Source: Sinohyriopsis cumingii | Taxonomy: Eukaryota; Mollusca; Bivalvia; Unionida; Unionidae | DNA: 64,000 nt | Assembly: GCA_028554795.2 (NCBI GenBank) | Contig: CM068838.1 | Location: 86,122,944-86,186,943, forward strand | Reading direction: 5' to 3' | Part shown: positions 107 through 63,364 of the stretch, piece after piece | Layout: every line of letters starts with the position of its first letter | Numbering within the stretch: the first letter of the stretch is position 1 | Notes under the pieces: model-generated | Seen by the model: the letters and a program-made list of their open reading frames with translations, nothing else | The model's database searches: none | Told to the model about the DNA's origin: nothing | Program-made: the position numbers and the translations under genes

Positions 107-250
107 CATTGGTCCATCCTGGTGGTCGAGTTGTCCTACTACATGGTGGGGTCTGCATGTACTCAGATAGTCCCAAGGTGTCCAGAAGCATCCCAGCCAT
201 TGAGCTGCTGTCCCAAGTAACACCCTTCAGATAGTTTGTCAGGGAGAAAT
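107..250 (-). CDS. Module 8 exon a (gene continues past window)
   Basis: This 144-bp exon is phase 1 to 1, with acceptor TTTTACAG|AT and donor AATG|GTATGT. It encodes DFSLTNYLKGVTWDSSSMA, MLLDTLGLSEYMQTPPC and PPGWTN. It is the shortest a exon; the PY-rich part after the Cys is cut. The remaining exons of module 8 must lie at coordinates below 1. Confidence 0.87.
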
Positions 251-2167
251 CTGTAAAACATGCAGAACATTCAATTTATACGGTAACAGCAAACTAATGA
301 AATAATGAGCTATGGAACCAGCCTATGTATGCTGGTATATTAAGTACTGTATTTGAGAGAGTGAAGGTCTCTGAATGGCTGAAAAAAATTACCACGGAAA
401 AAGTAACGTATTTTAGATGAAGCATATGTGTAAAGTGCACGTAACAGTAGGTTTGAGCCTTAAACCATGTTATTATTATCAATGTCACTGCATAGTTAGT
501 CCTGGAAGTAGGGGGAATCATTTTTGTGGCCATCTACAAGAGCACGTTTCACAAAAACAAGATGTGCAGCACACATTTTTTATTCTTTTAAATGTTTCCT
601 CTTGGATAAATCAATCACAGGATGTAAATGTGTTTCACTGATATTACCAAAAAAGTACAGTAACCAAACATTAACAAATACAGTCTATGGGAAGTGAATT
701 AGTTGTCTGTGTCCTACAGCAACAAAATCATCCTGTGAAAAGAGACATGGATAATGAATACACAACTCTTTTCTCACCCATTTATCAGTCAGTTTGGGTG
801 AATTTATACTTAATTTCAAGAATAACTTGTCTCTCTTGTAAATTTTGAATATATATTCCAATTTTTCATCATGCAGGATTTTTAAAACAGGTATTCTATA
901 TGAGCTTACTAAAATGTGATGCAATGATTTTCAAAGTCATACTATATTCATCCAAATCTGTGTCATAAATTCAAGCCAAAAAAATGTATGCTTAACAATT
1001 CTTGGCTTTTAGAAATGGACCTATATGACTGTATTACTAATGGTTAGGAAGAAAAATGTTAAACTATTATACTAATTTAAAAAGTATGTCTAAAAATATT
1101 GTATTTTTCTATATTTTATAAGTTTATAAATATTTTTTCTGGATTTTTCAACCATTTTTTTCAATGTCTTATTTTACTATGAAAGGATCTCTCTCTGCCC
1201 CAGGTGCAATAATGCAAATGGTCAAGGAAATATCTTCTTCTGACAACTGTTAAGACATTTACCTTGCAATTTCATTATCATCAAAAGATTCCAAGATTTA
1301 CTTGCCTTTTCCATGGCAACCACTCTATTTTACAATTTCATATAAACATCCGTGAGATATGCCTCTTACAAGGAAGAAAGGCTGATGCAACTGATTTTAT
1401 ATATTTACATTCAATGATGGTGAGTAATTTTTCAAGGAAAACAAAAATTTGGAATATTTCACATGGACCAGGAGCCCATATAATGATGACGAGATTAAAT
1501 ATTAAGATTATTATTATCTGCAGGTAAATATCTTTACTTGGATTCAGAATATTGGTTTCCCATGTTCATTACTTAAGTTTAAGTAACAGACCTGATATTG
1601 TTGACAACTAAAAATGTTCTAGAATTGAACTTTTGACTCTCATTATGGGACTCATACTGTGACTTAGGTTTTCATATAACGGAGAAGCAAGCAGAAATTC
1701 TGTATTCCTATCTTAACATCCAAAGTAAAATCAGTCTCTGAGCTGTGTTCAGTGTTTAAGAGGATTAATTTAAATTATTTTTGGGAATTAAAATGTGTTC
1801 ATAAATAATTTTGGACAAATCACTATTTTCGGATCTGATACATCAAGACTATTAGCACATCAACACAGCCAGGCTATTGGTACATCAGCATATACATGAT
1901 TGGAATTCATTCGGAACACCAATGAAATTAAGTTGCAACTCTATACTTTTGGACTTGTCATAGAAATTTAAGGACTAGTTGGGATTTAATTCAATACTGT
2001 AAATCATTTGAAATGTTCACTTTGTATTCTAGAGAAATGAATTATTTGTTTCATTTTACAAAACTTATTTTAAGACTATCGAGTCGTACCACATGGTGCA
2101 AGTGTAAGGAGTAAACAGTCCTGCTGCTTAGAGCTTGTAAAATGTTTGCTGTGCTGTAATATATTAC
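251..2167. other. Intron (module 7 d to module 8 a)
   Basis: A 1.9-kb AT-rich intron. Short open frames on both strands (294-924, 1264-1527) have no domain or exon-like context. No repeat family recognised. Confidence 0.6.
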
Positions 2168-2340
2168 CTGGTACACGCCATCCAGTACCTTTGGGGCAGA
2201 GAGGTTTAGGGAGCTTAAGTCCACGGAATGGAGTAACCTGGAAGGCACAGGGGCGAGTCTCGTCACTCTCCATGCAAATGCTTAGTGTAAGGTATTCAAA
2301 CTCAAACATCCCATCATTAGGTAGGTCACGTAGTACAAAG
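2168..2340 (-). CDS. Module 7 exon d (PKPLC exon)
   Basis: This 173-bp exon is phase 2 to 1, with acceptor TAATTTCAG|C and donor CCAG|GTAATA. It encodes FVLRDLPNDGMFEFEYLTL, then a C-x8-C pair (C MESDETRP C) and KLPKPLCPKG. Three Cys are present. It is the longest d exon in the window. Confidence 0.87.
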
Positions 2341-3577
2341 CTGAAATTATATTTAATTATGAGTAATGTAAATGGTACAGTATATGCCTGTAACACAGTT
2401 TAATTATCATCTATGATAAAATTTCAGTGCAGAAACCAATCAGTAAACTTGACTTCTGACCTTCTGACCAGAACTAATAAGCTTCTCCCTTAACCTAAGT
2501 GCTAACCAGCCACAGTCCAGATCTGTGATGGAAATATAATTCTATGGAAACCATTTTTCTTCTTCAACCACAGTGACATTCACCTTTGACCATTTGACCC
2601 CAAAATATATAGGCTTCTTTCTTACTCCAAGTGCAAGCTGTCCACAAAGTTTGCCACTGGTATGTGATGAAACTTAATGCTACTGTGCAAAAACCATATT
2701 TATTCTTTTAGTCATGGTGACCTTGACCATTGATCTTTTTACTGCAATATCAACAGTTTTCCTTAACTCAAGTGCAAGCTATCCACAAAGTTCAATCACA
2801 GTAGATAATGGAGAACTGAAGATATTATGTACAAACTATCTTTTTCTTTCTTCTGATCAAATACCTTGACCTTCTGAATTTGAAATTAATAGGGTTCTTC
2901 CTTACCTGAAGAACATGCAATCCAAAAAGGATTGGCTGCTATTTGGAATGATGGAGAGCAAGAGTTGTTGTGCAGAAAGTTTTTTTAATTCAGTCAGTGA
3001 TCTTGACCTCTCACCCCCAAATTGATGGGGTTCCTCCTTTCTATCCGATGCAAGCAATCCAAAAGATCTGGTAACTGCAAATGGTGGAGTTATTGTGGGA
3101 AATCATTTTTCTTCTTTCAGTCGCAGTGATACTGACCTCTGAGTAATTAAACCCAAAACCATTAGGGTTCTTTCTTAGCAAGTTCACACATTCATCTGAA
3201 CTGGTAGATGGTGAACAACCCAGTTATTGTTTGGAAATGAAACTGGTAACAAAAGCATAAACTGACTAATAGCATTGTAATATAATATGCTCCATGTACC
3301 AAAAAGTGTTGTGCCATATATAACAATACTTCAAAACTTCATAAAAAAATATTTTAAACTCTGGCTCACAAGAGGTTATTGAAAATATAACAAATAAATT
3401 AATTGGTTACAAAGAAAAAAGATATTTATGTTTGACCTGCCGAATGAATATTGGATTCCTACTCTAAGAATGCAAATACAGTTTATAATTCTTGCTATTT
3501 GGCACTTCTTAAAAATTTCACAATATGACTGCATCCAGTGTTGGACAAAAGTCTGTTCTTGCATGTGTGTGTGTGAA

Positions 3578-3580
<3 letters not shown>
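2341..3580. repeat. Intron (module 7 c-d) with dispersed repeat block
   Basis: From 2420 to 3240 there are about five diverged units with 'gaccttctgacc', 'gtgcaagctgtccacaaagt' and 'cttctttcagtcgcagtgat'. They are the best preserved copies of this family in the window. The rest is AT-rich. Confidence 0.65.

Positions 3581-3629
<49 letters not shown>
3581..3629. repeat. (AT)n microsatellite abutting a splice donor
   Basis: About 24 AT dinucleotides directly follow GTAAGT of module 7 mini-exon c on the minus strand. Confidence 0.95.
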
Positions 3630-3630
<1 letters not shown>

Positions 3631-3634
3631 TTAC

Positions 3635-3677
3635 TCAGTACGAATAACACCATAAAGCCATAACTGTTTCTTTACAC
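3635..3677 (-). CDS. Module 7 mini-exon c
   Basis: This 43-bp exon is phase 1 to 2, with acceptor TTTTTTCAG|GT and donor GA|GTAAGT. It encodes GVKKQLWLYGVIRT. The donor runs directly into an (AT)n tract of about 50 bp that begins at intron position 6. Confidence 0.78.
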
Positions 3678-4119
3678 CTGAAAAAAATGACACAGACACA
3701 CTTTTAATTTTTTCAACCCAGTTATCTCACTTTTTCTTCAAATATATACAGGCATTCATTTATAAGTGATAATCTATCATTTAATTTTAAGGACAGAACT
3801 TAATGTAAAGTACAGTGAACTCACTATTTTCATTGTGGCACCGTACCAATTTCCTTGGATTGTGGTTAATACAAAAAGATTTTAAAGTCAAACAAAACAA
3901 ATGGATGCTCCTGAAAATAAATGAATTCACAGAAATACAAAATATTGCAGAATTACATGAATCATTTTATTCATTTTAATTTTAATCTGCTATGTCATAA
4001 CTGGCATTGACTGGAAACAAGTAAATGTATTTGTAAGCAAAACATAGGGATTTTATTTTATTTTTCAAAATGTCCAGTACATTACTGTACAAAGTACTAA
4101 TTTTTACAGTACAGTACAG

Positions 4120-5046
4120 TACAATAAAAATGCTTACACCACTCAAAGTCAAACAGTGTCACGATGTATTTGGCTTTTCTGTGGAGGGATGGAGGCGCTT
4201 ACCTCACTTCAAGTCAAACAGTGCCACGGTATATTTAAGCTGTTCTATGGAGGGATGGAGGTGCTTACCCCACTTCAAGTCAAACAGTGTCATGGTGCAT
4301 TTAGCTTTTCTAAGGAGGGATGGAGGTGCTTACCCCACTTCAAGTCAAACAGTGTCAAGGTGTATTTAGATATTCTGTGGAGGTTTGGAGGTGCTTACCC
4401 CACTTAAAGTCAAACAGTGTCACTGTGTATTTAGATTTTCTGTGGAGGGATGGAGGTGCTTACCCCACTTAGAGTCAAACAGTGTCATGGTATATTTAAG
4501 CTGTTTTATGGAGAGATGAAAATGCTTACCCCACTCAAAGTCAAACAGTGTCACGGTATATTTAAGCTGTTCTATGGAGAGATGAAAATGCTTACCCCAC
4601 CCCAAGTCAAACAGTGTCAGGGTGTATTTAGATTTTCTGTGGAGGGATGGAGGTGCTTACCCCACTTAAAGTCAAACAGTGTCATGGTGCATTTAGATTC
4701 TCTGCAGAGGGATGGAGGCGCTTACCCCACTTCAAGTCAAACAGTGCCACAGTATATTTAAGCTGTTCTATGGAGGAATGGAGGTGCTTACCCCACTTCA
4801 AGTCAAACAGTGTCAAGGTGTATTTAGATATTCTGTGGAGGTTTGGAGGTGCTTAACCCACTCAAAGTCAAACAGTGTCACAGTATATTTAAGCTGTTCT
4901 ATGGAGAGATGGAAATGCTTACCCCACTCACAGTCCAACAGTGTCACAGTATATTTAAACTGTTCTATGGAGAGATGAAAATGCTTACCCCACTCAAAGT
5001 CAAACAGTGGCACTGTGTATTTAAGCTGTTCTATGGAGAGATGGAA
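4120..5046. repeat. 65/66-bp minisatellite made of exon end plus splice donor
   Basis: About 14 copies, with 'gcttacccca' landmarks at 4132, 4197, 4263, 4328, 4393, 4458, 4524, 4590, 4655, 4720, 4786, 4851, 4917 and 4983. The minus strand of a unit reads the donor GTAAGC, an intron-like stretch ending CATAG or CACAG, then codons HLSIEQLKYTVTLFDFEWG. Two subtypes alternate: 66-bp units with 'gagagatg' and 65-bp units with 'gagggatgg'. All but the copy at 4851 keep GTAAGC. Confidence 0.92.
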
Positions 5047-5204
5047 CACATATTCACACGAATCCAACAGCAGGTTGATGGAGAAGTGTCTGTTCAGCAA
5101 AGGGATGTACACACAAGTATCAATCCCTGTACAAACCGATGGAATGTGGCATCGCAGGTTATCCGGTAAAATAACATTATCCACACTGAGTGGTTTCGCA
5201 CAGT
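4989..5204 (-). CDS. Module 7 exon b, 3' end amplified as minisatellite
   Basis: This 216-bp exon is phase 1 to 1, with acceptor TTTTGTTCAG|AC and donor TGGG|GTAAGC. It encodes DC, LPDNLRCHIPSVCTG, IDTC (one Cys of the CC pair lost), LDSCEYVFHLSIEQLK and PLFDFEWG. Immediately downstream, the last 21 codons plus the donor recur about 14 times as 65/66-bp units. The first extra unit is in frame, so use of the next donor, ending the exon at 4923, would add 22 residues. Confidence 0.86.
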
Positions 5205-9800: not shown

Positions 9801-9977
9801 CTATTTTCCAGTTGCCAGTTGTGGTTGGTGAGTATAGTTTGGACTGGAAGCTGCAGGGTTCCACCAAGAGGTAACCAGATAACCCTGTCTCCTTAAAGAA
9901 CTTGTCCACAAGATTGCTAGCAAGCTGGCTTACTGCACCCCCTACATTCTCCAGGATCCATTTCTCCATTGAGAAAT
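9801..9977 (-). CDS. Module 7 exon a, weak donor
   Basis: This 177-bp exon is phase 1 to 1, with acceptor TTTCTTCAG|AT. It encodes NFSMEKWILENVGGAVSQL, VDKFFKETGLSGYLLVEPC and GNWKI. The donor ATAG|GTTCTT departs from the GTAAGT consensus. It is followed within 10 bases by a GATA-type microsatellite (9770-9790 on the + strand). Phase 1 and the WK ending place the boundary. Confidence 0.82.
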
Positions 9978-14910: not shown

Positions 14911-14953
14911 TCAAGCCGAATGACATCAAGCAGATAGAATTTGCCCATTTGTC
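14911..14953 (-). CDS. Module 6 mini-exon c
   Basis: This 43-bp exon is phase 1 to 2, with acceptor AAATTTTAG|GA and donor GA|GTAAGT. It encodes GQMGKFYLLDVIRL, aligned with EFSLNSVIKV of module 5. Size, phase and place in the cycle support it. Confidence 0.78.
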
Positions 14954-16906: not shown

Positions 16907-17116
16907 CCCAACTAAAGTTCTCTAGGGAAATGTTGACCTCCTTCCTCTCAATTCCAATACTCAGGATGAAATGGCAGCCATCAACAATCAAACGTGCACT
17001 AACTGAGTGCCGGATACCTGGAACATCCACACAGCAGTCGACCCCAGTACAAAACTTTGGTACATGGCAGGACACCATAGCAGGAAGAGTGGGCAAAACC
17101 AGGTCCAGGGGGCACT
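16907..17116 (-). CDS. Module 6 exon b (CC exon)
   Basis: This 210-bp exon is phase 1 to 1, with acceptor TATTTTAG|AG and donor TGGG|GTAAAA. It encodes EC, LPTLPAMVSCHVPKFC, TGVDCCVDVPGIRHSVSA, VDGCHFILSIGIERK and ENFSWG. All six Cys are present. The acceptor and following bases are duplicated 17 bases upstream (17130-17147), giving a nearby decoy AG. Confidence 0.88.
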
Positions 17117-19076: not shown

Positions 19077-19253
19077 CTTTGTGCCATCCAGAGGAATCAA
19101 ATGTCAGGTAGGGATATTGTTGTCGGTTACAGGGAGTATCCTTGAAGTACACAGCAATTCCCAATTTCTCCAGAAGATAGTCAACAGCTGAATCTTTTAG
19201 TCCATCCATCAGACTGGCTCCCTGCTCTGCCAACCAATTCTTCAGGCTAAAGT
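19077..19253 (-). CDS. Module 6 exon a (PPC exon)
   Basis: This 177-bp exon is phase 1 to 1, with acceptor CTCTTCAG|AC and donor AAAG|GTATGT. It encodes DFSLKNWLAEQGASLMDGL, AVDYLLEKLGIAVYFKDTPC, NRQQYPYLTF and SGWHK. It is close to the family consensus. Confidence 0.88.
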
Positions 19254-19369: not shown

Positions 19370-19530
19370 CTCGATTAAGGAATGGCATAGCTAGGTCACA
19401 TACTGACAGTGGGAACTTGGTCTTAGAGAGCAATGGAAACACAAGTGGACAGTAATTCTTGTCAAAGCAGATCCTGACTTCCAGGTCCACCTGAAGCTTG
19501 TTTTGGGAAGACAACAATTCCATGCTGTAA
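19370..19530 (-). CDS. Module 5 exon d
   Basis: This 161-bp exon is phase 2 to 1, with acceptor GAATTACAG|T and donor CGAG|GTACGT. It encodes YSMELLSSQNKLQVDLEVRI, C-FDKNY-C and KFPLSVC, which replaces LPKPLC, then DLAMPFLNR. Three Cys are kept. Its intron to the next exon is only 116 bp, the shortest in the window. Confidence 0.86.
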
Positions 19531-21824: not shown

Positions 21825-21867
21825 CTTACTTTTATTACAGAGTTCAGGCTGAATTCTTGCACTGTAC
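21825..21867 (-). CDS. Module 5 mini-exon c
   Basis: This 43-bp exon is phase 1 to 2, with acceptor AAATTTCAG|GT and donor AG|GTATGT. It encodes GTVQEFSLNSVIKV, the best match among separate mini-exons to the EYSLNGI segment fused into module 3 exon b. It is separated from exon b by a 4.1-kb intron filled by a 40-bp satellite. Confidence 0.82.
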
Positions 21868-23379: not shown

Positions 23380-25130
23380 ATGCATTACAGAAAGGCATAA
23401 ACTTTTTCTGTATTTATGCTTTTATAATACAATGGCATCCAAGCTATCTGTATTTATACATTTACAGAAAGAATGGCATCCACGTTTCTTGAATTTAGGC
23501 ATTTACAACAGAATGACATGCAAGCTTCATGAACTTATTCTTTTTACAACAGAATGGCAACTAAGCTTCTTACATTTATCCTTTTACAACAGAATGGCAA
23601 CTAAGCTTCTTACATTTATCCTTTTACAACAGAATGGCAACTAAGCTTCTTACATTTATCCTTTTACAACAGAATGGCAACTAAGCTTCTTACATTTATC
23701 CTTTTACAATCGAATGGCAACTAAGCTTCTTACACTTATCCTTTGACAACAGAATGTCAACTAAGCTTCTTACATTTATCCTTTTACAACCGAATGGCAA
23801 CTAAGCTTCTTACATTTATCCTTTCACAACAGAATGGCAACTAAGCTTCTTACATTTATCCTTTTACAACAGAATGGCAACTAAGCTTCTTACATTTATC
23901 CTTTTACAACAGAATGGCAACTAAGCTTCTTACATTTATCCTTTTACAACTGAATGGCAACTAAGCTTCTTACATTTATCCTTTTACAACTGAATGGCAA
24001 CTAAGCTTCTTACATTTATCCTTTTACAACAGAATGGCAACTAAGCTTCTTACATTTATCCTTTTACAACTGAATGGCAACTAAGCTTCTTACATTTATC
24101 CTTTCACAACAGAATGGCAACTAAGCTTCTTACATTTATCCTTTCACAACAGAATGGCAACTAAGCTTCTTACATTTATCCTTTTACAACCGAATGGCAA
24201 CTAAGCTTCTTACATTTATCCTTTTACAACAGACTGGCAACTTAGCTTCTTATATTTTCCTTTTTACAACCGAATGGCAACTAAGCTTCTTACATTTATC
24301 CTTTTACAACCGAATGGCAACTAAGCTTCTTACATTTATCCTTTTAAAACAGAATGGCAACTAAGCTTCTTACATTTATCGTTTTAGAAATGAATGGCAA
24401 CTAAGCTTCTTACATTTATCCTTTCACAACAGAATGGCAACTAAGCTTCTTACATTTATCCTTTTACAACCGAATGGCAACTAAGCTTCTTACATTTATC
24501 CTTTCACAACAGAATGGCAACTAAGCTTCTTACATTTATCCTTTAACAACCGAATGGCAACTAAGCTTCTTACATTTATCCTTTTACAACCGAATGGCAA
24601 CTAAGCTTCTTACATTTATCCTTTTACAACAGAATGGCAACTTAGCTTCTTATATTTTCCTTTTTACAACCGAATGGCAACTAAGCTTCTTACATTTATC
24701 CTTTTACAACCGAATGGCAACTAAGCTTCTTACATTTATCCTTTGACAACAGAATGGCAACTAAGCTTCTTACATTTATCCTTTTACAACAGAATGGCAA
24801 CTAAGCTTCTTACATTTATCCTTTCACAACAGAATGGCAACTAAGCTTCTTACATTTATCCTTTTACAACAGAATGGCAACTAAGCTTCTTACATTTATC
24901 CTTTTACAACAGAATGACAACTAAGCTTCTTACATTTATCATTTTACAACAGAAAGGCAACTAAGCTTCTTACATTTATCCTTTTACAACAGAATGGCAA
25001 CTAAGCTTCTTACATTTATCCTTTTACAACATAATGGCAACTAAGCTTCTTACAGTTATCCTTTTACAACAGAATGGCAACTAAGCTTCTTACATTTATC
25101 CTTTTACAACAGAATGGCAACTAAGCTCAC
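23380..25130. repeat. 40-bp satellite array, about 40 homogeneous copies
   Basis: The unit 'cttttacaacagaatggcaa' + 'ctaagcttcttacatttatc' repeats head to tail with few differences (ttttac/tttcac/ttttaa; cagaatgg/cgaatgg/tgaatgg) and stable 40-bp spacing. Two variant units (near 24230 and 24640, 'cttagcttcttatattttcc') recur about 410 bp apart, a sign of higher-order duplication. The first units near 23380-23540 are diverged. Confidence 0.92.
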
Positions 25131-25990: not shown

Positions 25991-26200
25991 CCCATGTGTA
26001 ATCCAATAATTTCAAAGTGAAGTCGTACTTCTCAATCCCTATACGAAGAATATAGTCACAATAGTTGAAGTAGAAGTAGAGATGGATGGATCGGTGAAGC
26101 TGACTGACTTCAATGCAGGTTTCAATTCCAGAACAATTTGCTGGCAGGTAATTCGCAATACGTCCCGTAAGGCTTGGCAAGATCAGACTCAAGTCACAGT
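25991..26200 (-). CDS. Module 5 exon b, two Cys missing
   Basis: This 210-bp exon is phase 1 to 1, with acceptor TACTATAG|AC and donor TGGG|GTAGGT. It encodes DC, LPSLTGRIANYLPANC, SGIETC, FNYCDYILRIGIEKY and LLDYTWG. Two of the six usual Cys are gone: VxC reads IAN, and the CC pair reads TC. A partial copy of its 5' end and acceptor lies about 120 bp upstream in the intron (26290-26370). Confidence 0.86.
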
Positions 26201-30371: not shown

Positions 30372-30539
30372 CATTTTTCCAGCCATTCGCTGGGTTGCTG
30401 TAAGGTCTAGATGAAATTTGACACTGGTGATCTGTTGGCAGAAGGTATGGCTTTAGCCCCAACCTCTCCAACAATTCTGATATGGCCAGGTCAGTCAACT
30501 GACCACCAACACTGGATACAAAACTTGAATAGGAAAAGT
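30372..30539 (-). CDS. Module 5 exon a
   Basis: This 168-bp exon is phase 1 to 1, with acceptor TTGTTGCAG|AC and donor AATG|GTAAGG. It encodes NFSYSSFVSSVGGQLTDL, ELLERLGLKPYLLPTDHQC, PYSNPANGWKN. The usual PPC is replaced by HQC after a two-residue insertion. No ORF of conventional length marks it; support is the motif order and exact phase. Confidence 0.85.
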
Positions 30540-32805: not shown

Positions 32806-32972
32806 TCTGTAAGAAATTATTGGCTGACCAGTCACAAAAGGGTTTGGGAACTCTGACATCTTGCAGAAGCTTCAAACTGAGGCCACACTTATCTGTGTCA
32901 TCACATACCTTGACTTTGACTTCCAAGCTGACCACAAACTTTTTCTGGCTTGGCAAGTCTGATATTTTGTAG
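32806..32972 (-). CDS. Module 4 exon d (PKPLC exon)
   Basis: This 167-bp exon is phase 2 to 1, with acceptor CTGCTTCAG|C and donor CAGA|GTAAGT. It encodes YKISDLPSQKKFVVSLEVKV, C-DDTDK-C and RVPKPFCDWSANNFLQ. Three Cys are present. The codon split to module 5 gives Asn. Confidence 0.88.
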
Positions 32973-33449: not shown

Positions 33450-33702
33450 CTAAATTGGAATACATCATGCAGAGAAACATTTCCTGGTATGCCAAACTGA
33501 TAATCCAATAAAAGAATTTCTTTTTTCCAGTTTTCCAACTGCAGTGTAAACAGATAATTGCATGCATTCAAAGTCACCATGATATGGAAGGAACGACCCA
33601 GAAATGGGAAGTAGACACAGCAGTCAAATCCAGTGCAAATATCTGGGATATGGCAGGCAACATTGTCAGGTAGTGCAGGTAAATTCAATGGAATGGGACA
33701 TG
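33450..33702 (-). CDS. Module 4 fused exon b+c
   Basis: This 253-bp exon is phase 1 to 2, with acceptor TTTTTCCAG|CA and donor TTTAG|GTAAGC. It encodes TC, LPALPDNVACHIP, ICTGFDCCVYFPFLGRSF, LNACNYLFTLQLENW, LLDYQFG and VSLHDVFQF. All six Cys are kept. Like module 3 it has no intron between the b and c parts. This exon is close to the family consensus and is a good query for homologues. Confidence 0.9.
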
Positions 33703-35356: not shown

Positions 35357-35533
35357 TGCTGTTCCATCTCTTATCATCAGAGGGTTGATATGGATGGCCT
35401 GCACGGTTACAAGGTGTACTCTGTATGTATTGGCTAATACCAAGTTTGTTGAAGAGGAGGTCAACTGTGTAATCTGCTAGTTGATCTGTGACTGAATCAC
35501 CAACTACTCTGAGTAATTCATTCAGTTTCAGTC
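35357..35533 (-). CDS. Module 4 exon a
   Basis: This 177-bp exon is phase 1 to 1, with acceptor TATATTTCAG|GA and donor AGCA|GTAAGT. It starts GLKLNELLRVVGDS where others have FSL. It then encodes DLLFNKLGISQYIQSTPC, NRAGHPYQPS and KRWNS. The TPC Cys is conserved. The split codon from module 3 reads Gly rather than Asp or Asn. Confidence 0.84.
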
Positions 35534-37823: not shown

Positions 37824-37972
37824 CTGGGAATTTATCACTGCAGAGAGGTTTTGGCAACTGAAGGTTCTTCAAAGTATTTAATTCAAATAAATACGACTCC
37901 TCCTCAATGCGAATACTGAGGTCCATGTTCAAGACAAATAGCTTGTCAGCTTTCAAGTCACTGATGGAGTAA
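37824..37972 (-). CDS. Module 3 exon d, lacking two Cys
   Basis: This 149-bp exon is phase 2 to 1, with acceptor ATTGCAG|T and donor CCAG|GTAATA. It starts YSISDLKADKLFVLNMDLSI and ends LQLPKPLCSDKFPG. The two central Cys of other d exons are absent: the C-x6-C segment reads IRIEEESYLFEL. Only the LPKPLC Cys remains. The open frame runs on past the donor into a LINE C-terminal fragment, which is intron, not coding. Confidence 0.86.
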
Positions 37973-45479: not shown

Positions 45480-45747
45480 ACAATGTTCGCTATCCCATTT
45501 AAACTATATTCATGCTTTTTCCCAAATTCGAAGTTCAGCAGCTGGTAGTTGTGAAGGAAGTTCTCAATGTTAATGTCCAGGAAATAATTGCATGCATCAA
45601 GTGTGATATTAAACAAGAAGGATCGCAGATACTGGTCCATGAAAGTGATTTTAATACAACACTGGACTGACATGCAGGAATCCCCTAGTGTGCATGTCAC
45701 ATTTTCTGGTAAGGTGGGCAGGGTCATTGGCAGTGTTCTGTTACACA
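45480..45747 (-). CDS. Module 3 fused exon b+c
   Basis: This 268-bp exon is phase 1 to 2, with acceptor TTCATTTCAG|TG and donor GT|GTAAGG. It encodes six Cys (LC, NVTC, DSC, VQCC, DAC), then ITLDACNYFLDINIENF and NFEFGKKHEYSLNGIANI. The c part (EYSLNGI) follows the b part directly, with no intron at the WG/FG position where modules 1, 2, 5, 6 and 7 are interrupted. The acceptor is the first copy of a 48-bp repeat just upstream in the intron. Confidence 0.88.
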
Positions 45748-45890
45748 CTGAAATGAAAAGTAAAGTATTTACAGCACTGTGTGATACATTACAAACTGAA
45801 ATGAAAAGTGAAGTATTTACAGCACTGTGTTATGCATTACAAACTGAAATGAAAAGTAAAGTATTTACAGCACTGTGTTATACATGACAC
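45746..45890. repeat. 48-bp x3 tandem repeat carrying the splice acceptor
   Basis: Three copies of 'actgaaatgaaaagtaaagt' plus 'atttacagcactgtgttatacattacaa'. The first copy overlaps the acceptor of module 3 exon b+c (minus CTTTTCATTTCAG). Each further copy reproduces the same polypyrimidine-AG text 48 bp apart in the intron. Confidence 0.85.
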
Positions 45891-49705: not shown

Positions 49706-49855
49706 AATTAACCCACTTTCCTGACTGGGATGCTTGACATTCCTCTTGGAGAAGGTATTTGGAAATTCCAAGTCTTTCCCATGTTGTGGCTATCAGGAAA
49801 TTATTCAACTGTCCTCCAGCTTCAGTGATCATTTCGCTCAATATTGTACCCATAT
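49706..49855 (-). CDS. Module 3 exon a
   Basis: This 150-bp exon is phase 1 to 1, with acceptor TTGTTGTCAG|AT and donor AATT|GTAAGT. It is shorter than most a exons and diverged: FSL is replaced by MGTILSEMITEAGGQ. ERLGISKYLLQEEC matches the LGxxxYLxxxPC core with Glu for Pro before the Cys. It ends KWVN. The split codon to exon b reads Leu instead of the usual Glu or Asp. Confidence 0.82.
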
Positions 49856-51586: not shown

Positions 51587-51744
51587 CTGGGTTTAACTTG
51601 AACACATCTCCCCATTCACATGGAGACTTTGGCAACTTGATGTTTTTCAAGACAGGGACAGACATATCACAGAAATCTGTCTCAAAACACAGACTGAGAG
51701 TCAGACTAAACAGGAAATATCTGTCGATGTCCTCTATCTTGTAA
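51587..51744 (-). CDS. Module 2 exon d (PKPLC exon)
   Basis: This 158-bp exon is phase 2 to 1, with acceptor TTTTTTCAG|T and donor CCAG|GTAGAG. It starts YKIEDIDRYFLFSLTLSLC, then ETDFC, and has KLPKSPCEW in place of the common LPKPLC. It keeps three Cys. The final NPG plus a split codon joins to Asp at the start of module 3. Confidence 0.87.
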
Positions 51745-52974
51745 CTGAAAAAAAAAGACATGAATCAGTCAAGTCTGACCAATGGGTTCAGCATACAGAA
51801 TAATGTGGCTGATTTTAATGCTGTTTTGTTTCTAACATACATATACTGTATAGATTATATTTTTTAAATTTAAATACATACATAAAAAATTCAGCATCTT
51901 GTAAAATAAATTGGAGTACTAACAGTGCCCATATTTTCAGTACGTTAAGGATGGACTTTTTAAAACTTAAATTTTTTGACAAATTAAATAAAAGATCACA
52001 GACTAAATAAAGTACATGATTTAGATTATTATCAACAAAATGGTGAATAACATTTACTTACTCTGCCCTCAAAATTCCAAACAACCAGAAGCTATTGGAA
52101 ACAGCTGAAAAAGAGCAGATAGCAAAATTATATTTAAAAAAAAACTACAAATACTACCAAAAAAATAAAGTAGTCTGAAACTTCAATATATTCTACTGAA
52201 ATCTTGCAATGATTTTCTAAACTGATCTCCAGTGACTAGGGGAAACAACATCACTTCCAGCACGAACCATTTGATCCTATGGTCAAATTCATTTTGATCT
52301 GTCATTTCAGTGTCATTGAATTCTGGTGAACAAAGATGAAAGTTAATATTAACAATGTTTGAATTACTAGGTGAAGGCATGACATTTTAATATTTTCTTT
52401 TTTTGTGAATCTCTCGAAAAATGAGAAGGCAATATTTTCTGCAAGAAAGTATCTTTTTTTAAATTTTGGAGGCAGTGGCAGTTCAAAAGGAGTGACTGCC
52501 ACACCAGAAACAGTTTGAAAATTATCATGCAATAAAAAGTGCTCTTTTCATAAACTGTCACACAATGAAACAATTTTAACTTCTTGACAGATACGGCTGA
52601 TTGTTGTTAAATGATTGCAAGCTAGAAGTTGTCTTTCCTTGATTTTCAACACAGTGTCAGTAGTTTTTGTAATAAAACATTGCAAAGGAACATTTAAATG
52701 ACCAATTTTCAATGATTAAAATTCACCAATTTATATATAAGGACTACAATGTATATTCTTCAATTTGCATTTTGATTTGACTAAACAAAAATTCCTTTAA
52801 TATCTTTATAAAATGAAAAACAAAGAACATACTTTCTACCTTTTAAATTACTATCAACAGTTAACGAACTTCAACCTCAAGTACTTTTTTCTAATTAATA
52901 GCAAAAATTATAGAATCAAACAATTATTTTATACAAAACATATCTTGGCATTTAAATCTGAAAAACATAATTAC
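51745..52974. other. Introns around module 2 mini-exon c
   Basis: Two introns, 317 bp (51745-52061) and 870 bp (52105-52974), flank the 43-bp mini-exon. Both are AT-rich and hold no repeat family I recognise. Minus-strand open frames between 52183 and 52573 overlap one another and show no similarity to the module. Confidence 0.6.
52062..52104 (-). CDS. Module 2 mini-exon c
   Basis: This 43-bp exon is phase 1 to 2, with acceptor CTTTTTCAG|CT and a strong donor GA|GTAAGT. It encodes AVSNSFWLFGILRA, aligned with the FSLNGV-like c segment of other modules. Support comes from phase, length identical to the c exons of modules 5, 6 and 7, and position between b and d. Confidence 0.74.
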
Positions 52975-53193
52975 CTAGTGATGCGTAATCCACCAATACA
53001 AATGATTCCTTGAATTTTTCAAGGGCAATGTCAAAGGTGTTGTTACAGGCATTCAAATCAATCTTGGCAGAAAGTGACTTGGCTAGTTTCTCAACACGGA
53101 TGCAGCAATGAATGGCAGTACAGTATTTGGGGATGTAACAAGACATGCGATAATCTAGCTTTGGAAGATAGGATGTATTCACAAAGGAACATT
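52975..53193 (-). CDS. Module 2 exon b (CC exon)
   Basis: This 219-bp exon is phase 1 to 1, with acceptor TTTTTCAG|AA and donor CTAG|GTAATT. It encodes EC at the start, then LPKLDYRMSC, PKYCTAIHCC, LNACNNTFDIALE and ends VLVDYASLG. All six exon-b Cys are present. The usual WG before the donor is LG here. It follows exon a of module 2 after a 445-bp intron and has the same split-codon Glu as module 1. Confidence 0.86.
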
Positions 53194-53638: not shown

Positions 53639-53809
53639 CATTCGTCCAGTAGGGTTCTACAGCTGTGTAAGGAGCCTCATTTCTATCACAGGGTGGGTCG
53701 AGCAGGATGTTGTCCGTCAGTCCAAGCATGTAAAGAAGTTGTTTAGATGCTGCTGAGGATAAAGCATCACCCCATCCCATTGTATCCTTCAAAGCTGATA
53801 GGGAAAACT
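53639..53809 (-). CDS. Module 2 exon a, with GC donor
   Basis: This 171-bp exon is phase 1 to 1, with acceptor GTTGCAG|AG. It encodes FSLSALKDTMGWGDALSSA, LYMLGLTDNILLDPPC and finishes YWTN. No GT lies at the expected boundary. The sequence there is AATG|GCAAGT, which matches the consensus of the rare GC-AG intron class, and phase 1 is preserved only if this GC is used. The open frame continues past the donor for a short way, so protein evidence alone would not place the end. Confidence 0.83.
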
Positions 53810-54388: not shown

Positions 54389-54552
54389 CGCCTGGCAGAA
54401 AGCTGACATTGGTGTTGCAGAGTGGCTGTGGTATCAGTGCATCCTTCATGAATGGCAGTGACAACTGACATGGTTGGTCCTTCTCTAAACAGACATTGAA
54501 GTCCAGATTCACTACAAACATCTTGGCATCATCCAACTTTCCAATGCTGAAG
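54389..54552 (-). CDS. Module 1 exon d (PKPLC exon)
   Basis: This 164-bp exon enters in phase 2 and leaves in phase 1; the donor is GGCG|GTATGG. It encodes FSIGKLDDAKMFVVNLDFNV, then C-x6-C (C LEKDQP C) and IPQPLC, with the three Cys typical of exon d. I placed the acceptor at TTGATAG|C because the other d exons begin with an aromatic residue plus xIxxL. A second AG six bases downstream (CTTCAG) is also in frame and would drop two residues. Confidence 0.83.
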
Positions 54553-54769: not shown

Positions 54770-55425
54770 CCAGTGTTCAGGCCAGGCTATGCCTTTGTGC
54801 CAAATTATGTCTTACAAGTCAGGCAAGGTTTGCCCTTGTGCCAGATGATGCCTTCAGGCCAGGCTATGCCCTTGTGCCAGACTAAGCCCTTCAGGCCAGG
54901 TTTGCCCTTCTGGCAGGCTATCCCCTTGTGCCAGACTATGCCTTTCAGGCCAGGCTATGCCCTTGTGTCAGGCTATGCTCTTCAGGCCAGGTTATAACCC
55001 TTGTGTCAGACTATGCCCTTGTGCCAGACTATTCCCTTCAGGTCATGTTATGCCCTTGTGTCAGACTATACCTTTCAGGCTAGGCCAGGCCCTTGTGCCA
55101 GACTATGCCATGAAGTCAGGCTATCCCCTTTGTGCCAAACTATGCCCTTCAAGCTAGGCTATACCCTTACGCTATCTGTCCTATCAGGCAATGCCCTTGT
55201 GCCAGACTATGCCTTTCAGGCCAGGCTATGCCCTTGTACCAAACTATGCCTTTCAGGCCAGGCTATGCTCTTGTGCCAGGCTATGCCCTTGTGCCAGACT
55301 ATGCCCTTCAGGCCAGGCTATGCCCTTGTGCCAGGATATGCCCTTATGTTATCTGTCCTATCAGGCTATGTCCTTATGTCAGACTATGCCCTTGTGCCAG
55401 GCTATGCCCTTATGCTATTTTATTA
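54770..55425. repeat. 18-bp degenerate minisatellite, GC-richer than surroundings
   Basis: Core units 'atgcccttgtgccaggct' and 'atgcctttcaggccaggct' alternate over about 650 bp. Because 18 is a multiple of three, several frames stay open and give a six-residue periodic translation. It ends 218 bp upstream of the acceptor of module 1 exon d. There is no sign that it is coding: all plus-strand frames are equally open and no splice sites fit. Confidence 0.85.
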
Positions 55426-57480: not shown

Positions 57481-57727
57481 ATTTAAAAAAATGTGTGATG
57501 AATGGATGGACGAACCAACATAATTGGTGACAAAAATCACTCAAAGGTATTAAAGGTTGAAAAAAACATCCAGGAATCCAAGACAGGACAATTTCTTCAT
57601 TTTAACTGGCGAGTGTTCAAACTATCTTTGATATCTTTGAGGGATAATAAGATTTTCAAGATGGCAGCTGTGATGACTTTAACATTGGCACCATTTTTAC
57701 TCCAGACATTGTATGAAGATTTTTTGT

Positions 57728-57972: not shown

Positions 57973-58569
57973 AGAAGAAGATTTTTGGTGATAACGCCAT
58001 ATCATTATGGAGGAGTAGTGTTAACAAGATTTCAAGATGGCTGTCATGGTAACCATATAAGATGCAAGATCAGCACTATTTTAATTTAAGACCAACCTGA
58101 CATCATAAGAAGTCTTATTTTCATAACCCCATTTGCATATGACCATTCAGCAGCAATAAAAAAAAATTCAAGATAGCAACCTTTGTGGCCATATTGGATA
58201 TCATATCAGCATCATATTCATTTAGGCGAAACTAAGGTCTTCTGGTGAAAACTCCATGTCAACATTATTTTCTGTCTAAGAGTGTCGATGATAAATTTTT
58301 CAAGACTGATGCTATGAAACCCAATTTGGATGTCTGATATGAATAGTTTCATTTAGGTCAAACATTGACATTGTAAGAAGTCTTTAAGTGAAAATCTTTT
58401 CTTGATATCACTATCTGCGTGGTATCACTAGTTGAACTAATTTTTCAAAATGGCAAAGGGGGGGGGGGCCATAATGCATATCTTGAACACCACCACTTTT
58501 GTTTCGGACCAAGTAGACCTTGGGATAAACATGTATCAAACTTTATGTCAATCCTTTTATGAGAATTTG

Positions 58570-58918
58570 CAATAACTTGTGGTGTGTTGTGATGTGATTT
58601 GGATTTTTAATGTAGCTTTAACAATTTTTCAGTCATATCGTTATGATGTATGTAATGTGGCAGTTTACAGTGATGTCTAGCACTGATGCATCATGCCACA
58701 GACATGTAGCATGATGTCCCACCCAGTCAAATTATGCTGACACCAGGCTGAGCAGTCCTAACACTAAACTCGTAATGCTGAGCGCCAAGCAAGGCAGCTC
58801 TTAGTACCATTTTTGTAAGTCTTTGGAATCACTTGGCTGGGGATCGAATCCATGACCTCCTGCATCATAGGTGGACGCTCTAACCACTAGGCCACCAGAG
58901 CGGTCAATAACTTGTGGT
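58570..58918 (-). mobile_element. tRNA-derived SINE (family 1) with 14-bp target duplication
   Basis: The tRNA-like head reads on the minus strand from about 58904, with a pol III A-box-like 'tggttagagcg' and B-box-like 'ggattcgatcc'. The body runs to 58584 and ends in 'aatccaaatcacatcacaac'. The 14-bp sequence 'caataacttgtggt' flanks it at 58570-58583 and 58905-58918, a direct target-site duplication. Related copies lie at 15930-16247, 18107-18265 and 21399-21728. Confidence 0.85.
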
Positions 58919-59208
58919 AATGGATGGCTATATGAAAAAGAAAACAACAACCATCCCATAATGTCTTCTGGCATATAACCACTAGAGCTAGTCAAAATAA
59001 CTCCAAGACCATTTTTTATGGGACTTAATGTCATGTCAAGATAGAAAATTGTTCAAAGTTTTCATGAAAACAGGAGAGCAGGAAAAGCCGATTCCAATAT
59101 ATCCCATGATTTGCTGGTGACGGTGGTAGCAATTCTGGCAATCCTTTTCTACTGAATAGACTGAATTCATCTCATACAAAATCAATGAAAATAATCCTGA
59201 CGAAAATG

Positions 59209-59262
<54 letters not shown>

Positions 59263-59527
59263 CATTTACTACTGCTGCTTTTCCAAAATCCCATGGATCT
59301 AAGAATTATACAGTACACCCTAAAAAATGAAACTGGGAGCTGAACACAGCAATCCTTTGAGTGCTACTTCCTTTTTCAATGCACACATCAACATGCCAAC
59401 TTACGACTCATTTGACAACAGCAAGCAAAAAAAATCTTCCACAGATGATGGGTGTGCTATGTAATGATTTCATCACATTATAAAAGACCATAGGAGCTCA
59501 GCTAATATGCAAGAATTTTAACCATAC

Positions 59528-59576
59528 CTAAAATATATCATATTTCCTGAGTCCAGATACAGCATCTCCTTCTGTC
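59528..59576 (-). CDS. Module 1 mini-exon c
   Basis: This 49-bp exon enters in phase 1 and leaves in phase 2. The acceptor is CTTTACAG|GA and the donor is AG|GTATGG. It encodes QKEMLYLDSGNMIYF, two residues longer than the other separate c exons, which are all 43 bp. Too small for ORF calling, it is supported by position between b and d, exact phase match on both sides, and alignment with the c part fused into exon b of modules 3 and 4. Confidence 0.75.
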
Positions 59577-60991
59577 CTGTAAAGAAAAAAGCAATGTATT
59601 CTATTTCACTGGTTCAGTGGAAAATGCTCAGTGCCCAAAGATAGCTGACAATTACACAAAGTTCAAGGAAAAGACAGATGAAATTATAAATGACATAAGT
59701 TAACTCTAGTTGGATCATGTTGCTGTTTGTCCTTGACCTCCAATTACTAACTGCAGGAGGGAATATTCACCTTGGATTGAAGACTAGGGTCAGGGAAAGA
59801 GAATGCTATGCCATAACAGCTGGGAATGTATTAATGCTATCAAAATTCCTTTTCCCTAAATCATAATAACCATGACCTTTTGACCCCAAAATCAGTAGGT
59901 CACTCTCTTAAATGCAAACCCTCTGAAAACTTTGATGAAAGGTAAAAAGCTCTGCAACTTAAACCATTTTCTTCTTTCAGTCATAGTGACCTTGACCTTT
60001 TCCCTTGTGTGTTGAAAATCAAAATGTTTATTCTTACCAAAAGTGTAAGCAATACATAAACTTTGGCAAAGGTACATGGCTGAGAACAGTACTGTAGTTT
60101 TGTGCAGAGGCCCACATTTCTTTTTCAAGCTACATTGACACTGATCTTTTGAGCACCTAAATCAACATACTTCTTCCTTACTGCAAGTGCAAGCCATCTA
60201 CAAAGTTTAGCCCATGTCAGTGATATAGAATGAAAATTATTGTGCACAAACAACCACTTTTGTTCTTTCTTCCTTAACCTTGGTCGTTTTGACTCAATAA
60301 TTGACAGGCTTCTTTCCTGACCCTGACCACCAATGCAAGCCATCGCCAATGTTTGGTCTAGGTCTGTGATGCAGAATTAATGTTACTGCATATAAACCAT
60401 CTTCTTCCTTTGTTCATAGTGACCTTGACCTTTGACCTTTTTTATCATAAGGTAAATATGTTTCCTAGGTGGTGCAAGTTACTGTGCTACGGACAGATGG
60501 ACATCACTGCATTCATCTGCTTCTTCAGTACTTAGGTCCATTTTGAGCCTCACATGTTAAAACATAATTTTTAAATCATATTTTCACCATTTTTATATAT
60601 ATAAAAAAACACGCTGTCACTGCATACCTTCTACCTTTATTTTTCCTTCTTTTCAAAAGAGCATATTGTAAAATAATGACCTACTACATGGTTAGACGGT
60701 ATGTAGTGACCAAAATCATATACAGTATGAAAAGGTAAAGTATGACTGGAATCATATTCTGCCTGAAAGAAGTTAAATGAAAAGCACTAATATCCTTTCA
60801 ACATTTTTAGAGTTACAAGATATCAATTAAAGATAATTAACTTTAATGTTCATCTGTTTTCTGAAAGAAAAAAATATACACAAAGGATGGTCAAAAAATT
60901 TAATTATTAAATAAACAGCTTGCATTTTAGCCTTCCTCTGTGATTCTTGCAACAGATAAAACATAACAATGACAACAAAAAATTTTCTTAC
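59577..60991. repeat. Intron (module 1 b-c) with dispersed ~165-bp repeat block
   Basis: From about 59860 to 60500 there are four to five diverged units, each containing 'gtgaccttgacctttgacc'-like text, then 'aagtgcaagc(c/t)atccacaaag' and 'cttctttc(a/t)gtcatagtgacc'. The same family occurs at 2420-3240, 12060-12250 and 44400-44700. It looks like an interspersed bivalve satellite, perhaps spread by a Helitron-like carrier, which is inference. Confidence 0.6.
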
Positions 60992-61204
60992 CCCAGTTGT
61001 AAGAAAAGATCTTCTGCAATCCCGTTAACTTTTCGATCCCATAAGAGATTTCAAAGTTGCAAAAGTCCAAGTTCAGGTAAGTATGCATGCTCAACCTTAG
61101 AGCATCCACAGTGACACAGCAATCAATAGAAGTGCATGTTTCAGACACTGAACAGACAACACCAGATGGAAGTGTGGGAAGGGTAAGTTTCTTGTAGAAG
61201 CACT
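60992..61204 (-). CDS. Module 1 exon b (CC exon)
   Basis: This 213-bp exon is phase 1 to 1, with acceptor TTTTACAG|AG and donor TGGG|GTAAGA. The translation opens with EC, then LPTLPSGVVC, SETCTSIDCC, LDFCNF, GIEKL and ends SYNWG. It has all six Cys expected of exon type b. The split first codon is completed by the G ending module 1 exon a and gives Glu. As in all b exons, the pattern alternates hydrophobic and polar residues after the CC pair, which looks like beta strands. Confidence 0.87.
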
Positions 61205-63199
61205 CTGTAAAATAAAAAAAGAAATTATTTCAAAGCAGCAATAAATTGCTGCAATAATAACAGTCTCTGTCAAAGATCTCTAGGTATGTTACAGCTCACT
61301 TTGCATAGTAAATTTTTGTGTTCATACTGTATGTATGTATGTATGTATGTATGTATGCATGTGCACATCAGCAAAATCCCAACTATTTAATGCAAAGTAA
61401 GTTAAGGAATCCCAAAGAGGCATACAATGCAACAGTTACATTCAAAAGAAGGATAAAATCATCATCAAAAGGAATTGAAGTTTTGATATATTATTTACCT
61501 GGATAACTGGTTATCTGGATAACTGATAAATATACAAAGAATAAGTTGTGTATTCTGGGAAGACTCTGCTGGTCCAGGTGCCTTAAAAGCCCAGAAAAGT
61601 GACATCTGCATAATCAATGTTTGACAGAATTGTATCAAGCTTCAATAAAAATGTGGCCCTGTATTTTCTCAGATCTAATACACAAGTGGCACTGTGCTGT
61701 CCCAAACTCTAATACACACCTGGCCGTGTACTGTCTCAAGCTCAATACACACATGGCCTTCTACTGTCTAATACTAATATTATGTAGCATTGGAGTAGAC
61801 ATGTGTGATTTATACTCAGGCTTTATCAGCATATTGTCAAAATGTTTTAATATGTTAAATACATATACTGAAATAAATAGTCCTATTATTTTATACCAGA
61901 ATTGCTAATTTTGTCCTAGAAATTCAAACATTCTTCATCCGAAATTTCCTTTTCAATCATCTGCCATATTAGTTTAACAACTACTTCCCTCTGCAGCCTC
62001 CTGTTTTGTATGCCATATAAGGATATTGCAGCATTATTTGGAAACGTCAACAGATTGTTGTCAGTATTGCATGCATTTAGTAGTATATACTAGAATATCC
62101 AAATATGGTCAGGCAATCCTTATTTGGGTAAAATGAAATACCACAAGAGTCTTGTGTTATCGGCCATGGGTGACAAAGTGTGGTTAGCATAATTTATCTT
62201 ATGTATACTTACTTTTATCATCAGCCAAACTTCCTAAAACACATAACTCTACTTAGGTAGTAGATTATAAGTCAATGTCATCTTTTTGTCTTGGACAATA
62301 TTTTTATTTGCTCCATTGTGAGGTATAGAATCACATCACAGCCCTGACCACATCAAGGCTATGATATCACAGCTACTGCCTGTCAAGCTCTGATACACAG
62401 CTAAGCTTGTATTGTCTAAAGCTCTTATACACACCTGGATCTGTATTGTCTCAACGTCTATCACACACCTGGCCATCCTCTGTCTCTCAAGCTCTAACAC
62501 TTGGCCTTCTACTGTCTCTCAAGCTCTAATACCCATCTCACCCCATATTGTCTCAAAAATCTCCAATATATACCTGATCTTGCATTATATCAATTTCTAA
62601 TACAACATGGCCCTCTACTGTCTCAAATTTTAATACACACCAGGCCCTACATTGACTTGTACCTTTATACACATACCTAGCTCTGTTATGTCTCAAACTC
62701 CAATACACACTTTGCCCTGTATTTTCTCAAGCCCTAATATACAACTGACCCCGTACTGTCCCAACTTCTAATATACACCTGGCCCTGTATTCTCTACCTG
62801 GGTTGTTGGTTTGGTTTTTTGAAGTGCAAAATTCCAGCTTCAAGTTTCAACATACCAGAAAGTTGGACAATCTAAGATTCTGCATATAACAAGAATCAAA
62901 TAATAGAACCTAATATAAATCACACTTATTATTTACAACATACGGATGTGTTCAAAGCAAAACTTAAGTCATATATACTAATGTGATGAAAGTAGAGAAA
63001 TACATGCAAACTAAATCATTTTTTTCAAAAAATATAACTTATAAATAAATAACAAGTTTTACTACTTGCAATGAAAACAGCTGATACAAATCTTTTAAGA
63101 CAGTAAATAAAACTCAGCACATATAATTCATGCCATAAATGAAAAATTTACAAAAAATCTACGCTCACAATCTAGGATGCACAAAACTTAAAAATGTAC
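61205..63199. repeat. Intron (module 1 a-b) with ~34-bp degenerate tandem repeats
   Basis: A degenerate unit of about 34 bp, core 'ctctaatacacacctggccc' followed by 'tgtattgtctcaag', recurs at about 61685-61775 and 62330-62795. The copies are diverged and broken by indels. A (TATG)n tract sits at 61327-61358. Short open frames across the units are read-through of the repeat and not genes. Confidence 0.7.
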
Positions 63200-63364
63200 C
63201 GTTTTTCCATCCACTGACTGCTCCTTCATATATTGTATCCTGTGCAGAACATGGAGGGTCTTGGATGTATGTATCAATTCCAAGTTGCTTCAACAGAAAG
63301 TTTACTGCAGCATCAGTCATAGCAGTCAATGCATGATTTTTCATCCAGGTTGTCAGAGAGAAAT
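63200..63364 (-). CDS. Module 1 exon a (PPC exon)
   Basis: This 165-bp exon is phase 1 to phase 1. The acceptor reads TTTCAG|AT and the donor reads G|GTACAT. It opens with FSLTTWMKN, continues with a helix-like stretch AVNFLLKQLGIDTYIQ, then DPPC (the single conserved Cys of exon type a) and closes with SGWKN plus a split codon. It is the most upstream exon in the window. Nothing homologous lies between it and 64000, so the exon d of the preceding module must be beyond the edge. Order, phase and motif match the seven other a exons. Confidence 0.87.

What the first reader, a model, noticed from the sequence alone, without database searches (positions are those of the whole stretch)
107..63364. 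Seven-plus tandem copies of an unnamed ten-cysteine module, exon by exon in phase
Twenty-seven exons chain without a single phase clash or stop, and each module is a multiple of three (189-203 codons). The exon cycle a-b-c-d with phases 1-1-2-1 means a whole cycle can be gained or lost in frame. The module (FSLxxWL, LGxxxYLxxxPC, CTGxDCC, LDxCNY, DYxWG, FSLNGV, LPKPLC) fits no Cys-rich domain family I can name. The real protein must be larger than the 1426 residues seen here, as both ends run out of the window. This is the best candidate in the window for an undescribed system. A secreted matrix, mucus or adhesive role is only a guess.
Basis: partly seen in the sequence, partly recalled or inferred. 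Interest (0 to 1): 0.85.

Follow-up and report, generated by a model that had tools for sequence, protein, structure and literature searches.

The report
Giant gene of repeated cysteine modules
This stretch is the middle of one enormous gene, one of nine look-alikes in this animal, that strings together copies of a cysteine-rich protein building block absent from the family and structure libraries searched; it probably encodes a huge secreted scaffold protein.

Summary
On the minus strand the window carries seven complete a-b-c-d exon cycles plus an eighth a exon: 27 exons, compatible splice phases, 1425 codons, no stop. Module 1's short c exon is uncertain, modules 3 and 4 have b and c fused, and modules hold 8-10 cysteines. 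Pfam, NCBIfam and PDB-sequence searches gave no credible match. The window is internal to a much larger gene. Two capped searches of the source genome give 190 distinct b-exon places (lower bound), all within nine paralogous genes on three chromosomes or one orphan tail segment. An M23-like head exon, a SAP-domain exon and a degenerate tail exon were each found nine times. The window gene spans at least 316 kb. dN is below dS in most exons compared; Cb2 and Cb4 tend to be lost together, and glycosylation sequons are enriched across 44 b exons but not in the window's own modules. The bc and d exons are predicted beta-sheet. Best reading: a giant disulphide-stabilised secreted scaffold. Role, species, RNA and signal peptide are not established.

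The parts
63200..63364 (-). module 1, exon a
   Evidence: phase 1-1, homologous to the other a exons
60992..61204 (-). module 1, exon b
59528..59576 (-). module 1, exon c (uncertain)
   Evidence: strong acceptor, phase 1-2, weak peptide similarity only
54389..54552 (-). module 1, exon d
53639..53809 (-). module 2, exon a (GC donor)
52975..53193 (-). module 2, exon b
52062..52104 (-). module 2, exon c (by splice sites, phase and length)
   Evidence: 43 nt, phase 1-2
51587..51744 (-). module 2, exon d
49706..49855 (-). module 3, exon a
45480..45747 (-). module 3, fused exon bc (a second in-frame acceptor lies 48 nt upstream)
37824..37972 (-). module 3, exon d (lacks Cd1 and Cd2)
35357..35533 (-). 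module 4, exon a
33450..33702 (-). module 4, fused exon bc; AlphaFold model m1cea367a847f made from it
32806..32972 (-). module 4, exon d
30372..30539 (-). module 5, exon a
25991..26200 (-). module 5, exon b (lacks Cb2 and Cb4)
21825..21867 (-). module 5, exon c
19370..19530 (-). module 5, exon d
19077..19253 (-). module 6, exon a
16907..17116 (-). module 6, exon b; identical in protein to copy B on the same chromosome
14911..14953 (-). module 6, exon c (by splice sites, phase and length)
   Evidence: another candidate tied in score
13373..13539 (-). module 6, exon d; AlphaFold model m449a8b6b2979 made from it
9801..9977 (-). module 7, exon a (weak donor GTTCTT)
4989..5204 (-). module 7, exon b (lacks Cb4; a second in-frame donor lies 66 nt downstream)
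3635..3677 (-). module 7, exon c (by splice sites, phase and length)
2168..2340 (-). module 7, exon d
107..250 (-). module 8, exon a; array continues beyond the window

Best explanation
The window is an internal part of one giant gene (at least 316 kb on contig C15 of the source genome) in a family of nine paralogues. In the two genes read at the 5' side, the product starts with a region that looks helical and a degenerate M23-like head, then first modules of which two carry a SAP domain, then a long array of modules of about 195 residues; a degenerate last module closes it. I propose a very large secreted protein shaped like beads on a string. Each bead is a helical part (exon a) plus a beta-sheet domain (exons b, c, d) locked by about five disulphides inside the bead, so the array would be a stiff, glycosylated, multivalent scaffold, with the head recognising a partner. 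Shown: exon chain, nine-gene family with head and tail exons, low dN/dS in most exons compared, one matched cysteine loss pattern. Inferred: secretion, disulphide pairing, bead fold. Least certain: that it builds a matrix, mucus or egg coat.
For: 27 exons in phase without a stop. Head, SAP and tail exons each found nine times; in eight genes head, SAP, array and tail lie in order on one strand. Of 190 b-exon places from two capped searches, 0 lie outside the nine genes or the one orphan tail segment (the outer limits of the split gene's two segments were set by me). Copies A and C: dN 0.080-0.115 against dS 0.27-0.41 in 3 of 3 exons; C13 pair dN 0.069 against dS 0.297. Cb2 and Cb4 both lost in 3 of 44 b exons, Cb4 alone in 1; Cb3 and Cb5 present in 44 of 44; sequons 53 against 17.6 by shuffling in the same 44. 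Single cases of joint loss of Cd1 with Cd2 (module 3) and of Cb6 with Cd3 (one neighbouring module). AlphaFold: five strands in bc, three in d, Cd1 and Cd2 at the two ends of a hairpin turn.
Against: No signal peptide exon was found in the sequence fetched. SAP domains are usually nuclear (recalled), which sits oddly with secretion. Sequons in the window's own modules are not enriched (12 against 9.8; 27% of shuffles reach 12). Module 7 lost Cb4 but kept Cb2. Between copies A and B one of three exons shows little contrast (d7, dN 0.015, dS 0.026), and counts there are small. The M23 match is below Pfam's cut-off, and against PDB sequences it is no stronger than chance-like hits to unrelated helicases. 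Nothing about expression or tissue was available.
Confidence: 0.55

Rival explanations
1. A giant soluble carrier or lipid-binding protein of the blood: each module is a beta-rich cup with an amphipathic helix that holds a hydrophobic ligand, and the array multiplies capacity, in the way hemocyanin repeats its units.
For: Antiparallel beta strands in the bc and d exon models next to an a exon that looks like amphipathic helix (by eye); weak Foldseek entries include a lipocalin, a fatty-acid-binding protein and an ependymin-related protein, all at E above 1.
Against: Best Foldseek match E 1.2; no sequence match to lipid-transfer families in Pfam; partial-domain models only.
Confidence: 0.15
2. 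A multivalent immune recognition protein: the M23-like head is a non-catalytic glycan or peptidoglycan binder (LECT2-like) and diversified modules bind microbes.
For: M23-like exon found once in each of nine genes; in the two genes read, the first zinc-ligand position is changed while the HxH motif is kept (ligand roles recalled).
Against: Copies A and B are nearly identical in the three exons compared, and the first three modules pair by position across genes, unlike fast-diversifying immune repertoires; M23 assignment is sub-threshold.
Confidence: 0.15
3. A cluster of many separate small genes, one module each, not one gene.
For: Introns of up to several kilobases and no RNA.
Against: Each inter-module junction in the window is a phase-1 intron and the chain reads through without a stop; head, SAP and tail exons were each found nine times, for 190 b exons.
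Confidence: 0.04
4. The module is a known domain, or the proteins are already recorded as 'uncharacterized' in mollusc proteomes, and only the libraries here lack it.
For: I recall similar unnamed repeats in mollusc protein records (recall, not tested); InterPro-only families and animal proteomes could not be searched, PHROGs and PADLOC were not searched.
Against: Pfam, NCBIfam and PDB sequence searches gave nothing credible; full-text searches for the motifs gave 0 papers.
Confidence: 0.4

Closest known systems
Giant modular extracellular proteins built of tandem cysteine-rich domains in phase-matched exons (fibrillins, SCO-spondin, gel mucins; recalled)
   Same: Tandem disulphide-rich modules, phase-symmetric exons, very long genes.
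   Different: The module itself matches no Pfam domain credibly and the head is SAP plus M23-like.
SAP domain (PF02037)
   Same: The SAP2 exons of two paralogous genes match above the curated cut-off (E 7.6e-8 and 8.7e-8).
   Different: Here it lies between exons a and b of a cysteine-rich module; usual SAP proteins are nuclear DNA or RNA binders (recalled).
Peptidase family M23 / LECT2 (PF01551)
   Same: Both genes read end this region in an M23-like stretch with HIHFAI and DPTR(F/Y)L.
   Different: Below the cut-off (18.2 and 20.3 against 28.7 bits); the His of HxGxD is D or Y, so catalysis is unlikely.
Tandem gene arrays without known similarity reported in the squid Doryteuthis pealeii (PMC9068888; found passages and section 11 seen)
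   Same: Tandem arrays of unclassified genes in a cephalopod genome.
   Different: The passages and section seen describe no such module; its Supplementary Table 4 was not read, so identity is untested.

Membership tests
SAP domain (head only) | Pfam PF02037 score above curated cut-off | tested here: met
   32.2 and 32.0 bits against 23.9 for the SAP2 exons of C15 and C13; the SAP1 exon of the window gene scored 23.4, just below (inside a joined sequence); the C13 SAP1 exon was not scanned
Peptidase M23 / LECT2-like (head only) | Pfam PF01551 score above curated cut-off | tested here: not met
   18.2 and 20.3 bits against 28.7
Peptidase M23 / LECT2-like (head only) | Zinc ligands HxxxD and HxH | tested here: not met
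   two genes: first His is D (C15) or Y (C13); Asp and HIH kept; ligand roles recalled
Any Pfam cysteine-rich domain (module) | Significant Pfam match of a whole module | tested here: not met
   7 of 7 window modules scanned, one chance-level hit (E 0.033, STRA8 bHLH, 1 member)
Any domain with a solved relative (module) | PDB match by sequence or fold | tested here: inconclusive
   no credible sequence match; 0 of 115 fold matches at E <= 0.001 (50 shown), best 1.2, but only for a partial, single-exon model; a whole module was not folded
Secreted modular scaffold | Signal peptide | tested here: inconclusive
   none convincing; the first exon was probably not reached
Secreted modular scaffold | Intramodule disulphides | tested here: inconclusive
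   Cb2 and Cb4 lost together in 3, Cb4 alone in 1, of 44 related rows
Secreted modular scaffold | Expression in a secretory tissue | not testable with these tools
   no RNA or protein data held

The most novel reading that the evidence does not exclude
A previously undescribed extracellular domain family, arranged as at least 18 to 29 modules per protein in most of nine giant genes (one found with only two b exons, one split in this assembly), with nuclear-type SAP domains taken into a secreted disulphide-rich protein; a lineage-specific biomaterial comparable in importance to reflectins or suckerins.
Probability: 0.35. Interest if true: 0.8.

Novelty: new variant of a known kind. Interest (0 to 1): 0.62.

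Why it matters
Eight genes that span about 140 to 560 kb from head to tail exon, plus a ninth that is split, all built from an unclassified domain, are a large gap in what is known of this genome. If the proteins are secreted scaffolds they are candidates for a mucus, matrix, egg-coat or adhesive material, and they give a clean case of a phase-symmetric exon cycle multiplied within genes and by whole-gene duplication, testable with ordinary RNA and proteomics.

Tried and rejected
Known family: Pfam, NCBIfam and PDB sequence searches gave nothing credible for the module. Prokaryote or virus origin: scans of the prokaryote genome contigs and of the viral contigs with one canonical b exon gave 57 and 3 pattern matches, none confirmed as a relative. 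Fold match: only single-exon models were made; the bc model matched nothing, the d model was not searched; the second PDB aligner was not available. Haplotype artefact for the paired clusters: of 11 pairs of 3-4 kb stretches compared (at most four pieces shown each), six close pairs align at mostly 84-96% (one piece 78%), the C13 pair at 70-85%, two A/C pairs only in short pieces of 73-93%, and two pairs not at all; I read the close pairs as real duplications, but assembly error is not excluded. Third SAP exon: a pattern search listed only one of the four SAP exons already known, so it tests nothing. Signal peptide: no convincing candidate. Species: a reflectin query gave 3 matches from 14 scored candidates, two with stops read through (best E 4.7e-10), the stop-free one E 1.1e-4; inconclusive. 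Literature: listings for octopus or mollusc reports showed no description of it, and peptide motifs gave 0 papers; of three papers I saw found passages (PMC11431876, PMC10138644, PMC9068888) and of the last also section 11.
Full report
Observation. The reverse complement of the window contains seven copies of a b exon, recognised by phmmer at E 4e-52 to 2e-10 when the module-4 copy is used as query against 2103 ORFs of both strands; no plus-strand ORF scored below 0.72 with that query. Around them a, c and d exons with proper splice sites were located. The chain has 27 exons (8 a, 5 b, 5 c, 2 fused bc, 7 d), all lengths agreeing with phases 1-1, 1-1, 1-2, 2-1, 1425 codons, no stop; modules are 197, 197, 189, 199, 194, 199 and 203 codons. 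All acceptors are AG; 26 of 27 donors are GT and one is GC. Weak points: exon c of module 1; the c exons of modules 2, 6 and 7, chosen by splice sites, phase and their shared 43 nt (in module 6 another candidate tied); and a duplicate in-frame acceptor in module 3 and donor in module 7. Cysteines per module are 10, 10, 8, 10, 8, 10, 9. In the alignment of the seven modules the twelve invariant columns include six cysteines.

Known families. Scanning all seven modules against Pfam gave one chance-level hit, likewise NCBIfam; a profile of the seven against PDB sequences gave two hits at E about 2; a canonical b exon from another gene gave none. Scans of prokaryote genome contigs and viral contigs with that exon gave no confirmed relative.

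The gene around the window. The window lies at C15:86122944-86186943 of a genome of 2.9 Gb in 1138 contigs. Fetched flanks carry further modules on both sides. Comparing the region on the 5' side with a second gene on C13 by exon-level BLAST showed ordered, conserved head exons (positions and splice context): two exons that look helical by eye, an M23-like stretch (Pfam PF01551 at E 0.0029 and 0.00064, below the cut-off), an acidic exon, then modules in which a SAP exon lies between a and b (PF02037, E 7.6e-8 and 8.7e-8 for the two SAP2 exons). Two SAP exons were found in each of these two genes. In M23 terms the first His of HxGxD is D or Y while HIH is kept, so I expect no catalysis. Against PDB sequences SpoIIQ, itself M23-like (recalled), came first at E 0.14 but in the two-row profile search unrelated helicases (best 0.084) outranked it (0.18), so this assignment is suggestive only.

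A nine-gene family. The SAP2 exon found 9 matches among 12 scored candidates, the M23-like exon 9 of 10 and the tail exon 9 of 9, the weakest at E 0.003. In the three C15 genes, the three C13 genes and two of the three on C2, head, SAP, array and tail lie in order on one strand. Two b-exon searches, each limited to 150 scored places of 258 and 252 candidates, merge to 190 distinct places; 0 lie outside these genes or the one orphan tail segment. About a hundred candidates in each search were not scored. Found per gene: C15 18, 18, 18; C13 29, 28, 2; C2 27, 27 and 18 in the array of the third head. These are lower bounds: the b exon of window module 3, for one, is not in either list. Spans from M23-like exon to tail exon are about 317, 333, 318 kb (C15), 243, 308, 139 kb (C13), 500 and 561 kb (C2). 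The third C2 head array (83.38-83.74 Mb) has no tail hit nearby, whereas a tail with five b exons and no head lies at 64.88-64.97 Mb: a rearrangement or an assembly error.

Age and selection. Of the C15 copies, A and B share mostly 84-89% of aligned DNA, introns and exons together; C2 pairs mostly 90-96% with one piece at 78%; the C13 pair 70-85%; A and C align only in short pieces (at most four pieces shown per pair). Exons are better kept: A versus B, two amino-acid-changing differences in each of a8 and d7 and none in b6; A versus C, dN 0.115, 0.083, 0.080 against dS 0.273, 0.414, 0.352; one C13 pair dN 0.069 against dS 0.297; four C2 pairs have 0-2 changes of each kind, and A versus B d7 shows little contrast (0.015 against 0.026) (six comparisons of three exons and five b-exon pairs, no significance test). 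In a b-exon tree the first three modules pair by position across C15 and C13, the fourth less cleanly (it groups also with window module 1), and several C2 and C13 exons group with counterparts in other genes, so module order predates the gene duplications in those places. Support values were not examined.

Structure and chemistry. In 44 b exons Cb3 and Cb5 are always present; Cb2 and Cb4 are both lost in three and Cb4 alone in one (Fisher 3e-4, but two of the three are positional counterparts, so not independent). Two rows show a gap at Cb1: one reads as cysteine in the longer ORF, the other is cut by the edge of the fetched piece. Module 3 lacks Cd1 and Cd2 together, and one neighbouring module lacks Cb6 and Cd3 together; each is one event. 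This suggests Cb2-Cb4, Cb3-Cb5, Cb6-Cd3, Cd1-Cd2 and, by elimination, Ca-Cb1. N-glycosylation sequons number 53 in the 44 b exons against 17.6 in shuffles (0 of 2000 reached it), one alignment column being shared by 21; in the window's own modules they are not enriched (12 against 9.8). AlphaFold on the fused bc exon with seven window rows gave mean pLDDT 74 and five strands; the d exon gave 83 and three strands, Cd1 and Cd2 flanking the turn between two of them. Foldseek against PDB found nothing better than E 1.2 for bc, on a partial domain.

Function. From anatomy I infer a very large secreted protein of repeated disulphide-locked beads with a head that may bind a partner; the role (mucus, matrix, egg coat, adhesive) is a guess. 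A carrier role and an immune role are the main rivals. No RNA, proteome or tissue data were available; no signal peptide was found. Octopus skin-mucus papers mention many uncharacterized proteins (found passages only) but nothing that identifies this one.

Novelty. Giant modular secreted proteins are a known kind; the module is unclassified in the libraries searched. I recall similar unnamed repeats in mollusc protein records, untested, so the family may not be confined to this lineage.

Noticed in passing
window 4131-5045: A 65-66 bp minisatellite of 14 copies is made of the 3' end of exon b of module 7 together with its splice donor, so the following intron holds many duplicate GTAAGC donors; using the second would add 22 codons in frame.
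   Followed up: partly
window 45741-45889: A 48 bp repeat of about 3 copies overlaps the acceptor side of the fused bc exon of module 3 and gives a second in-frame acceptor.
   Followed up: partly
window 23412-25127: A 40 bp minisatellite of about 43 copies in the intron between exons b and c of module 5.
   Followed up: no
window 54776-55415: A complex array of repeats with periods of 18, 37 and 55 bp in the intron before exon d of module 1.
   Followed up: no
source genome C2:63.61-64.17 Mb and C2:84.76-85.26 Mb: Two genes with 27 b exons found in each, in opposite orientation about 21 Mb apart, with mostly 90-96% DNA identity in the stretches compared: a large inverted duplication.
   Followed up: partly
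source genome C2:83.38-83.74 Mb and C2:64.88-64.97 Mb: One gene head with an array but no tail hit nearby, and one tail with five b exons but no head: a rearrangement or assembly error.
   Followed up: partly
L046 6895-7170: The tail exon of the C13 gene ends in a basic stretch RRRKR, like a furin-type cleavage site (recalled); whether the other genes keep it was not checked.
   Followed up: no
L047 276-2784: ORFs on the minus strand that read like a LINE-type reverse transcriptase and endonuclease, a few kb beyond the C13 gene's tail exon (by eye).
   Followed up: no
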